A stretch of DNA of 64,000 nt from Symbiodinium sp. CCMP2592 (lineage: Eukaryota; Sar; Dinophyceae; Suessiales; Symbiodiniaceae): the NCBI GenBank assembly GCA_905221615.1, contig CAJNDT010004890.1:434001-498000 (forward strand), read 5' to 3'. A model generated the notes under the pieces. The model saw only the letters and a list, made by a program, of their open reading frames with translations, did no database searches and was not told the DNA's origin. The position numbers were made by a program, and so were the translations under genes. How positions within the stretch are numbered: the stretch's first letter is position 1; each line of letters begins with the position of its first letter. Shown here piece after piece: positions 8,401 to 9,062 of this stretch.

Positions 8401-8826
8401 TACATAGATAGATAGAAACCACAATAAGGAACAGGACAAAGGTTGGTCTTCGTAGCTGCAGGTATCCCTACAAACCCTAGACCCAAAGGGTCCTAAATAC
8501 ATATATATATATATATATAGATAGTCGAATGAAGGGCGTCTGTGATAGGAATTGCTATTCTGGTTTGGGCAAATTTCCCCCAGTAGGAACCCTTATAGCA
8601 ACCCTGGAACCCTAGACCCTAAACCCCTGAACCCTAAATCCTAAACCCATAAAACCCTCAACCCCCAATCCCATAATCAAGCCCTAAACCCTAAACCCAT
8701 AACTAAGCCCTAAACCCTAAACCCACGATTAAGCCCTAAACTCTAAACCCCTAACGTTCCTAGACCCCCCCCACGGAGCCGCGCCTCCAGGACCGAAGCC
8801 TCCGCCGAACGGGAAGCCTCCGAAAC
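802..8826 (-). CDS. DNAJ: J-domain (DnaJ/Hsp40, class A-like) protein, multi-exon, partial
   Basis: A co-chaperone that stimulates Hsp70 ATPase through its J domain. Seven exons on the minus strand, in transcription order 8785-8826, 7313-7350, 5869-5921, 3953-4013, 3544-3595, 2727-2753 and 802-840, join in frame. They give a G/F-rich segment, the J-domain start (DDRLYQQL), helix II (AEIKSAYKKQAMK), the HPD loop, helix III (KFKDISKAYEVL), helix IV (SDPQRRQLYDAYGEAG) and a Gly/Ala linker ending in NPFDLF, the usual order in protist class A proteins with a Gly/Phe N-terminus. Introns are 357-1886 bp and contain hairpin elements and TTTAGGG tracts. Five of the six donors following these exons within or beyond the model are GC and one is GT; the donor of exon 2 reads GG and is ambiguous. 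All acceptors are AG. The first exon with the start codon (a candidate is at 13708-13747) and the zinc-finger/C-terminal part are not resolved. Confidence 0.9.
849..940 (+). repeat. degenerate TTTAGGG tract
   Basis: Imperfect TTTAGGG units (ttagggtttggggtttaggc and similar) just beyond the 802-840 exon, within the preceding intron of the DnaJ-like gene. Confidence 0.7.
1657..1755. repeat. hairpin element, family E
   Basis: Starts CCTAGGAATAAGAAGGGCTC and ends with the inverted 'actaggcatcct' arm. Related copies at 44208-44303 and 45839-45934. A family B end (ctacccatgaacctccaag) follows immediately. Confidence 0.55.
2239..2412. repeat. (TC)n microsatellite
   Basis: About 170 bp of CT/TC dinucleotides interrupted by 'gctcgatc', T-runs and 'gcgctcgctcgc'. 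Produces long Ser/Leu and Glu/Arg reading frames on the two strands that are not genes. Confidence 0.95.
2727..2753 (-). CDS. DNAJ: DnaJ-like microexon: Gly/Ala linker
   Basis: Only 27 nt, reading LDGAGADA with split codons at both ends. Acceptor GTTGAG, donor GC. Phases fit both neighbours, and the peptide fits the Gly-rich linker that follows the J domain; length and lack of conserved residues make it less certain. Confidence 0.6.
3544..3595 (-). CDS. DNAJ: DnaJ-like exon: J-domain helix IV
   Basis: 52 nt reading VLSDPQRRQLYDAYGEA plus one base. It continues KAYE from the previous exon to give the canonical AYEVLSDPxxRxxYD motif. Acceptor CTCCAG, donor GC (GCAGAT). Confidence 0.92.
3806..3913. 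repeat. hairpin element, family C (AGAGCCCAAT ends)
   Basis: Inverted arms 'agagcccaatacctcttaat' and its reverse complement, with the family core TTAATTAAGGAATATACCT. Lies in the DnaJ-like intron 3596-3952. Confidence 0.85.
3953..4013 (-). CDS. DNAJ: DnaJ-like exon: HPD loop and helix III
   Basis: 61 nt reading YHPDRGGDEAKFKDISKAYE. The HPD tripeptide is the diagnostic catalytic loop of J domains. Acceptor ACCGAG lies directly downstream (in sense) of a TTTAGGG tract at 4017-4102 that reads CCCTAAA on the coding strand; donor is GC. Confidence 0.93.
4017..4102 (+). repeat. TTTAGGG/TTTAAGG tract
   Basis: Alternating TTTAGGG and TTTAAGG units directly abutting the acceptor of the HPD exon; on the coding (minus) strand it reads CCCTAAA up to the acceptor. 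Confidence 0.9.
4422..4513. repeat. hairpin element, family O
   Basis: Arms 'ccctaaggccccaaagtagt' and 'actactgtggggctttaggg' are inverted; inner arms 'tcctttttggg' and 'ccccaaaaagga' also pair. Confidence 0.8.
4604..4715. repeat. hairpin element, family C
   Basis: Arms TACCCAGAGAGCCCAATACC and its inverse GGTATTGGGCTCTCTGGGTA at the two ends, core with taattaagcaatatatctt. In the 4014-5868 intron. Confidence 0.9.
4831..4937. repeat. hairpin element, family F
   Basis: Arms 'tactgttgatgatataaatc' and 'gatttacatcatcaaccgta'; internal CTAAACTATGGGAATAATGG shared with copies at 19874 and 30344. In the 4014-5868 intron. Confidence 0.85.
5176..5279. repeat. hairpin element, family H (TTTCCGAAAAT ends)
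   Basis: Starts 'ggaagtttccgaacacaggg', ends 'aactttctgaaactc', with the family core 'aggatccttttaacaaggac'. Third hairpin family within the same intron. Confidence 0.7.
5340..5517 (+). repeat. tandem duplication, ~76-bp unit
   Basis: 5340-5415 and 5441-5517 share 'gaactctttraattacccct' through 'cttagacttgtgttc', differing mainly in a C-run length. They are separated by 25 bp containing 'gggttttaggg'. Confidence 0.85.
5560..5722 (+). repeat. TTTAGGG tract
   Basis: About 20 imperfect TTTAGGG/TTTTAGGG/TTTAGGGG units within the 4014-5868 intron, close to the 5869-5921 exon. Confidence 0.92.
5869..5921 (-). CDS. DNAJ: DnaJ-like exon: J-domain helix II
   Basis: 53 nt reading GASTQAEIKSAYKKQAM plus two bases of a Lys codon. 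Acceptor TTTCGAG, donor GT (GTCCGG). Lys codon AA|G is completed by the first base of the next exon, giving K-YHPD. Helix II of J domains typically carries the basic face (KKQ here) that contacts Hsp70. Confidence 0.88.
6016..6153. repeat. hairpin element, family A
   Basis: Left arm CTTGGAGGATCGGGGGACTT, right arm ends CCGACCCTCCAAG. The core 'cttataagtaccctaaaagg' is shared with copies at 12559, 25136 and 45675. The right arm carries a small insertion (ccgact). Confidence 0.88.
7313..7350 (-). CDS. DNAJ: DnaJ-like exon: start of J domain
   Basis: 38 nt reading GGGGDDRLYQQL after a CCCAG acceptor. It supplies helix I of the J domain. The exon must end at CTT to keep frame with GASTQ in the next exon, leaving GG as the apparent donor dinucleotide; an alternative split (G|GC) breaks the frame. 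This boundary is therefore the least certain in the gene. Confidence 0.8.
8358..8412. repeat. (AT)/(GATA) microsatellite
   Basis: Runs of tatata, acacatatgtat and gatagatagata; another (AT)n tract at 8500-8522. Confidence 0.9.
8580..8757 (-). repeat. CCCTAAA tract, left bracket of a DnaJ-like exon
   Basis: Degenerate CCCTAAA units (accctaaacccctgaaccct and similar) ending about 30 bp before the exon 8785-8826, with the opposite-orientation TTTAGGG tract beginning about 20 bp after it. Confidence 0.9.
8785..8826 (-). CDS. DNAJ: DnaJ-like exon: Gly/Phe-rich N-terminal segment
   Basis: 42 nt reading GFGGFPFGGGFGPG, with the first codon split. It is preceded by GCAGCGCAG (acceptor) and followed by a GC donor. 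The phase (2 nt in, 1 nt out) matches the next exon. It sits between a CCCTAAA tract (8580-8757) and a TTTAGGG tract (8845-9062) with little spare sequence. Confidence 0.8.
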
Positions 8827-8844
8827 CTGCGCTGCTGCTTGGGG

Positions 8845-9062
8845 GTTTAGAGTTTAGGGTTTAGGGGCTTAGGGTTTCGGGTTGAGGGCGTTTAAGGGCT
8901 GAGGGGTTTAGGGCTTAGGGTTCATAGGAGCTAATAAAGGGGGAGGCTTAGGTCTCAGGGTTTAGGGTTTACGGGCTTAAGGGTTTAGGGTTAAGGATGT
9001 AGGGGTTTAGGGTTTAAGGGGTTAAGGGTCAAGGATGTAGGGGTTTAGGGTTTAGGGTTTCT
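8845..9062 (+). repeat. TTTAGGG tract, right bracket of a DnaJ-like exon
   Basis: Long run of TTTAGGG, TTAGGG and TTTAGGGG units. Inverted relative to the tract at 8580-8757. Confidence 0.92.

What the first reader, a model, noticed from the sequence alone, without database searches (positions are those of the whole stretch)
8580..9062. Exons bracketed by oppositely oriented telomere-like tracts (CCCTAAA - exon - TTTAGGG)
Seen directly: the DnaJ-like exon 8785-8826 lies in a short gap between a CCCTAAA tract and a TTTAGGG tract. The same order surrounds candidate exons at 10755, 26152, 28243, 29828, 32062, 32824, 33785 and 41781, and half-brackets occur at 3953 and 34745. The order is strand-symmetric, so in sense orientation introns tend to begin with TTTAGGG and end with CCCTAAA. 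Inference: complementary intron ends could pair and loop the intron out, CCCTAAA could serve as pyrimidine tract plus CTAAA branch point, and GGG runs near the donor could act as splicing enhancers. Alternatively the tracts mark insertions of elements with telomeric termini.
Basis: partly seen in the sequence, partly recalled or inferred. Interest (0 to 1): 0.88.

Follow-up and report, generated by a model that had tools for sequence, protein, structure and literature searches.

The report
Telomere-like repeats oriented around exons
In a dinoflagellate genome, short stretches of chromosome-end (telomere) repeat are scattered by the hundred thousand, and where they lie next to exons they tend to face one way before the exon and the other way after it, which suggests that gene splicing decides which insertions survive.

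Summary
The window lies in a 1.1-Gb dinoflagellate genome (spliced leader 429 times, control 0). The arrangement at 8608-9078 is real. Of eight further brackets claimed, six hold; 32824 and 33785 do not. Genome-wide the doubled heptamer occurs 242,927 + 244,814 times (reversed control 209 + 224). C-gap-G order exceeds G-gap-C order 2.70, 2.39 and 1.46-fold at gaps of 60-90, 270-300 and 440-470. On 111 dynein and kinesin exons found by homology, tracts within 60 nt are C-oriented upstream in 10 of 12 and G-oriented downstream in 12 of 14. Over nine window/threshold choices the upstream bias reaches p < 0.05 in six, the downstream bias in one; kinesin L047 is a counter-example. Five array edges show 14-26-bp direct repeats, but such repeats are not enriched over all tracts. 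Best reading (0.45): interstitial telomeric insertions whose orientation near exons is filtered by splicing, since C-arrays contain no AG, GT, GC or GA while G-arrays carry AG and GT in every unit. Pairing of intron ends is untested; one telomere-ended element per intron is weakened. My nine literature searches turned up no report of this.

The parts
8608..8767 (-). C-oriented telomere-like tract (reads TTTAGGG in the sense of the minus-strand gene), first part of the intron after the exon at 8775-8826
8775..8826 (-). candidate exon, ..GCAG|GTTTCGG..GGCTCC|GTGGGG.., Gly/Phe-rich reading FGGFPFGGGFGPGGAAP
   Evidence: open frame with AG and GT edges; no Pfam match: inferred
8842..9078 (+). G-oriented telomere-like tracts 8842-8924 and 8955-9078 (read CCCTAAA in sense), end of the upstream intron
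3953..4015 (-). J-domain exon RYHPDRGGDEAKFKDISKAYE; the sequence before it reads CCCTAAACCGAG
   Evidence: Pfam DnaJ E = 0.0004 below cut-off, PDB HSP40 matches, sequence
4016..4098 (+). G-oriented tract next to the J-domain exon (half-bracket)
10688..10738 (-). C-oriented tract
10751..10814 (-). candidate exon, GCGAAG|CCTGGGAGC..GGGCATTCC|GTGGGGTCTAG
   Evidence: open frame between AG and GT: inferred
10828..10919 (+). G-oriented tract
26140..26242 (-). bracketed island, candidate exon
28228..28320 (-). bracketed island, candidate exon
29815..30005 (-). bracketed island, candidate exon
32047..32131 (-). bracketed island, candidate exon
41753..41823 (-). bracketed island, candidate exon

Best explanation
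The tracts are interstitial telomere-type arrays of a dinoflagellate (telomere motif TTTAGGG), present in very large number and dense in the introns of some genes. Shown: their mass, the genome-wide excess of C-gap-G order that falls with spacing, and an orientation bias within about 60-100 nt of independently mapped exons, firm upstream and suggestive downstream. Shown for a few arrays only: direct repeats of 14-26 bp on both sides, as expected of insertion at a staggered break. In two dynein cases the repeat spans the inferred splice junction and in a third it ends six bases before it, so that the outer copy keeps working and the array ends up in the intron. Inferred: orientation near exons is set by which insertions splicing tolerates. 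A C-array holds no AG, GT, GC or GA and offers CTAAAC (branch-point-like) in every unit, so it is harmless or helpful just before an acceptor. A G-array holds AG and GT in every unit; just before an acceptor it would supply false acceptors, while just after a donor its AGs are too close to be used and its G-runs may help the donor.
For: Dinoflagellate: the spliced leader 217 + 212 times, control 0. Mass: 242,927 + 244,814 against 209 + 224; eight perfect units 6,442 + 7,302 (overlapping matches), control 0. Order at equal spacing, C-to-G against G-to-C: 1982:733 at 60-90, 7248:3034 at 270-300, 4986:3405 at 440-470. Mapped exons (95 dynein, 16 kinesin): within 60 nt 10 of 12 upstream C and 12 of 14 downstream G; with at least 18 nt of tract within 100 nt, 6 of 6 and 6 of 7. 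By bases within 100 nt: dynein upstream G 20, C 235, downstream G 168, C 37; kinesin upstream G 22, C 139. Direct repeats around single arrays: L030 acceptor 24 of 26, L035 exon E acceptor side 19 of 20, L035 exon B donor 13 of 14, and both edges of a bracketed island in L003 (22 of 25, 22 of 26). Word content of perfect arrays. Base composition with tracts masked shows only a weak keto skew.
Against: The exon-level sample is small and uneven: most tract bases come from L030, L035 and L047. Downstream, only one of nine choices gives p < 0.05, and kinesin exons by bases go the other way (G 63, C 121 within 100 nt) because L047 has a long C-array just after its donor. Without L030 and L035 the dynein exons show no upstream bias (G 20, C 27). 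G words do lie before some acceptors: L032 4975-5312 (27 bases), L035 6049-8081 (15), L031 5451-5503 (10), L055. Flanking repeats are not enriched over all tracts against random intervals of the same loci (score 12 or more, 6 observed, 11.4 expected; 2 observed, 5.2 expected; most high controls come from L023, L036 and L001, and its tract bounds leave the L003 and L035 cases out of its top list). Further copies of junction sequence in neighbouring introns: 5 of 125 junctions at p up to 0.02 against 2.5 expected. No AG depletion clearer than that of the control word GA was seen before guessed acceptors. Intron borders come from homology, not RNA.
Confidence: 0.45

Rival explanations
1. Introner-type or other mobile element whose inverted termini are telomere-like: each intron is (or began as) one inserted copy with a G-array at one end and a C-array at the other, spliced out on the spot.
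For: The order along two window introns is G,G,G then C,C in sense: 10755 to 8785 and 8785 to 4017 (tract list). Dinoflagellate introners with inverted repeats and target duplications are in print (PMC7789003, PMC9860276, passages seen). GA and GC donors with AG|G acceptors at paralogue-specific positions fit intron gain.
Against: The clear direct repeats flank single arrays, not whole introns. Of 43 contiguous introns one had G at its start and only C at its end. Dynein paralogues L025, L027 and L029 have many introns without any array.
Confidence: 0.2
2. An active exon-definition code: C-arrays (pyrimidine and branch point) and G-arrays (GGG enhancers), or their pairing across the intron, are kept by positive selection because they help to splice long introns.
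For: Bias on both sides of mapped exons within 60 nt. The two dynein loci rich in tracts, L030 and L035, have widely spaced detected exons.
Against: Most of the 111 mapped exons have no array within 100 nt and are presumably spliced. L029 has detected exons more than 1 kb apart and one heptamer in 10 kb. L047 has a C-array directly after its donor. The bias fades quickly with distance.
Confidence: 0.2
3. Telomere-like arrays are neutral repeats without any link to splicing; the bias comes from a few genes, from overlapping counts and from local expansion of arrays.
For: Window-only permutation p = 0.10. Dynein without L030 and L035: upstream G 20, C 27 bases within 100 nt. Coding-potential contrast of C-G against G-C gaps p = 0.12.
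Against: Genome-wide 2.70 and 2.39-fold excess that falls to 1.46 with spacing; the exon counts at 60 nt come from 9 and 10 loci.
Confidence: 0.15

Closest known systems
Short interstitial telomeric sequences inserted at double-strand breaks (mammals; PMC2246262, PMC7215372, passages seen)
   Same: Internal telomere-motif arrays; insertion with deletions, additions or target duplication; a share of them in introns; none in human exons.
   Different: Here the doubled motif occurs some 488,000 times; arrays are often degenerate, dense in some genes, and oriented around exons. An empty orthologous site was not available.
Introner elements of dinoflagellates (PMC7789003 Amoebophrya and PMC9860276, passages seen; Roy et al. 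2023 seen only as cited in PMC11453091)
   Same: Inverted sequence at intron ends, direct repeats at splice borders, unusual donors, dinoflagellate host.
   Different: The shared sequence here is a telomere-type array of variable length; the clear direct repeats flank single arrays.
G-run intronic splicing enhancers and CTAAY-type branch points (recalled, no call)
   Same: Sequence words of the arrays match these in the right places.
   Different: No functional or RNA evidence here.

Membership tests
Interstitial telomeric sequence | Species' own telomere motif at internal sites | tested here: met
   TTTAGGG arrays inside contigs of a genome that carries the dinoflagellate spliced leader; TTTAGGG is the dinoflagellate telomere motif in print (PMC11453091, passages)
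Interstitial telomeric sequence | One-step insertion shown by an empty orthologous site | not testable with these tools
   The search tool states that this genome has no relatives held
Interstitial telomeric sequence | Break-repair traces at the borders (duplication, deletion, filler) | tested here: inconclusive
   Direct repeats at five array edges, no overall enrichment
Introner element | Many introns share one element sequence end to end | not tested
   No clustering of whole introns was run
Introner element | Inverted repeats at both ends of the same intron | tested here: inconclusive
   Telomere-type words only: one of 43 contiguous dynein introns had G at its start and only C at its end; two window introns between candidate exons fit
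Introner element | Target duplication flanking the whole intron | tested here: inconclusive
   Short AG|G-type repeats at paralogue-specific introns (by eye); longer repeats flank single arrays instead

The most novel reading that the evidence does not exclude
Telomere-type arrays insert at exon/intron junctions themselves, duplicating 14-26 bp at or across the splice site; the outer copy stays in use, the inner copy is stranded in the intron, and repeated rounds lengthen introns and leave the G..G-C..C order. Telomeric repeats would then be a source of intron growth in dinoflagellates.
Probability: 0.17. Interest if true: 0.85.

Novelty: new variant of a known kind. Interest (0 to 1): 0.57.

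Why it matters
If confirmed, it would connect telomere-repeat insertion, a known scar of break repair, with intron size and splice-site choice on a genome-wide scale, and offer one reason why some dinoflagellate genes have very long introns. It also gives a cheap sequence-only cue (C-array, gap, G-array) for exons in genomes that are hard to annotate, and a natural test of whether telomeric repeats affect splicing, a question that the authors of PMC7215372 left open (passage).

Tried and rejected
Window-only order test: not significant. Hexamer coding potential trained on about 15 kb of dynein coding sequence: C-G gaps score above C-C and G-G gaps together (p = 0.004) but not significantly above G-C gaps (p = 0.12). 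Rfam at gathering thresholds: nothing. Pfam on two whole minus-strand frames of the first 15 kb (the third frame and the rest were not scanned): nothing.

Target duplications as a general rule: not supported. The first test, against re-paired flanks, looked strong (22 observed, 5.2 expected at 8 or more exact bases), but controls taken from the same loci removed it. The null printed at the end includes the loci themselves and is not used. Junction copies left in introns: near chance; the second-best hit there (L035 exon E donor) has no array between the copies.

A mistake of mine, corrected: I first read an exon 'EISHTKQGHQ' after the G-array of L035 and called that array a whole new intron. 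One search shows the next exon (DMGRTLGVFV) at L035 5732, so the array lies at the 5' end of an intron of about 740 bp and is not an intron by itself. While checking this report I also mended an earlier wording: the repeat at the acceptor of L035 exon E ends six bases before the junction and does not span it; I lowered the novel case by 0.01 for that.

AG depletion before acceptors, expected under my reading, was not seen beyond the control word, though acceptors there were guessed.

I saw titles, abstract openings and, for nine papers, passages; none of what I saw names telomere-like arrays at exon edges. Most subscription papers are not held; Roy et al. 2023 was not seen.

Full report
What was checked. 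The C-oriented tract at 8608-8767 and the G-oriented tracts at 8842-9078 stand on the two sides of a GC-rich island that reads as an exon on the minus strand. Of the 250 heptamers in the window 249 lie in the first 48 kb. Within the window alone the order is not significant (12 C-to-G gaps of 40-250 nt, 8.5 expected, p = 0.10).

What genome this is. The window is part of a 1,098,105,373-base assembly in 5,383 contigs. TTTAGGG is the telomere motif of dinoflagellates (PMC11453091, passages). The species was not determined.

How common the tracts are. Two perfect units occur 242,927 + 244,814 times, the reversed pattern 209 + 224 times; eight perfect units occur 6,442 + 7,302 times, overlapping matches included.

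Genome-wide order. With two perfect units on each side, C-to-G against G-to-C counts are 1982 and 733 at gaps of 60-90, 7248 and 3034 at 270-300, 4986 and 3405 at 440-470: ratios 2.70, 2.39 and 1.46. The counts overlap within arrays, so they are not independent events; the fall with distance is the informative part. Independent placement would give about 1,679 per class.

Exons mapped without looking at tracts. Family searches for dynein AAA_6 (PF12774, 44 matches) and kinesin (PF00225, 89 matches) gave exons in many genes. Eleven dynein loci (L025-L035) were scored with a profile whose backbone is a long open frame of an intron-poor paralogue (L024), giving 95 exons at the cut-off used. Tract content is very uneven: L030 and L035 have 57 and 61 strict heptamers in 10 kb; of the other nine scored loci seven have 0-2, L028 has 7 and L034 has 16.

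Result on mapped exons. Counting exons with at least 9 nt of tract: within 60 nt, upstream tracts are C-dominant in 10 of 12 (p = 0.019) and downstream tracts G-dominant in 12 of 14 (p = 0.006); within 100 nt 11 of 14 and 11 of 17; within 200 nt 13 of 18 and 13 of 22. With at least 18 nt of tract within 100 nt: 6 of 6 and 6 of 7. Over all nine combinations tried, p < 0.05 (uncorrected) in six upstream and one downstream. Counting bases within 100 nt: dynein upstream G 20, C 235, downstream G 168, C 37; kinesin upstream G 22, C 139, downstream G 63, C 121, the last because of one long C-array after the donor in L047. Dynein without L030 and L035: upstream G 20, C 27; downstream G 75, C 37. Of 43 introns whose exons are contiguous in the profile, seven had any tract word within 150 nt of an end; one (L035 4081-4918) had G at its start and only C at its end, and in three (L031, L032, L035 6049-8081) a G word lies before the acceptor (exon C of L035 was added later).

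What the arrays look like at splice sites. In L035 dynein exons were read by homology. Exon B (..GTGKTETTK) ends AAG|GAGGGTTTAGGG; the next exon (DMGRTLGVFV) begins at 5732 after GTGCAAG|. The G-array after exon B is flanked by AGACCACGAAGGAG and AGACTACGAAGGAG, which span the donor. The C-array before exon E is flanked by GGTTTCCTGTTCTTCGAAGT and GGTTTCCTGCTCTTCGAAGT; the second copy ends six bases before the acceptor. In L030 the C-array before the exon ..VFITMNPGYAG.. is flanked by a 26-column repeat (24 identical) that includes the inferred AG|G and reaches into the exon. Both edges of a bracketed 109-nt island in L003 carry repeats of 25 and 26 bp (22 identical each); that island is not shown by homology to be an exon (all). 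These look like target duplications of single arrays. They are not enriched over all tracts, so insertion with duplication is indicated for these cases and not for the rest.

Explanation. Perfect C-arrays contain no AG, GT, GC or GA and one CTAAAC per unit; perfect G-arrays contain AG and GT in each unit. A filter by splicing therefore predicts C before acceptors and allows G only where its AGs cannot be used, close behind donors. The mapped exons agree in direction, more firmly upstream than downstream, which is also what this reading expects. The filter does not by itself require G after donors; help from G-runs is an inference from general knowledge. Rivals are a telomere-ended mobile element, an actively maintained exon code, and a neutral background; the evidence for and against each is in the fields above.

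Relation to what is known. Mammalian interstitial telomeric sequences are inserted at double-strand breaks, with duplication of flanks in 4.6% of rodent and 16% of primate loci (PMC2246262 Table 1) and 4.5% of horse loci (PMC7215372 Table 5); none of the human ones lie in exons and 31% lie in introns, and the authors suggest testing effects on splicing. Introns with inverted repeats at their ends are reported for Amoebophrya (PMC7789003, passages), and introners with 4-bp duplications and inverted termini for Symbiodinium microadriaticum (PMC9860276, passages). What seems new here is the orientation of telomere-type arrays around exons on a genome-wide scale. I found no report of it in the nine searches named in Tried and rejected.

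Noticed in passing
window 52436-52735 and 63615-63914: Direct repeats of at least 300 bp, 100% identical, 11,179 bases apart: ends of a young repeat element or a recent duplication.
   Followed up: no
window 59626-63512: Unit of about 704 bp repeated about five times with irregular spacing, parts 67-100% identical.
   Followed up: no
window 48231-51819, + strand: Two GC-rich open frames (648 and 615 aa) with no Pfam match, in the part of the window that lacks telomere-like tracts.
   Followed up: partly
window 3803-3915, 4602-4714, 19404-19516, 23224-23336, 26881-26993, 32252-32364, 34819-34931: Palindromic MITE-like family with ends like CCCAGAGAGCCCAATACC / GGTATTGGGCTCTCTGGG, seven copies at 61% identity or more to the reference copy.
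   Followed up: no
L035 about 4480-4580 and 9400-9540, L045: A second palindromic sequence with ends like GGATCATGGGACTTAGTAA / TTACTAAGTCCCATGATCC, seen in introns; the inverted pair at window 6016-6139 and 12567-12690 looks related by eye.
   Followed up: no
window 13001-13563: (CTA)n repeat of about 560 bases.
   Followed up: no
L025-L035 against L024: Dynein heavy-chain paralogues range from long open frames (2272 aa in L024) to genes with many introns, with GA, GC and GT donors and AG|G acceptors at differing positions, read by eye.
   Followed up: partly
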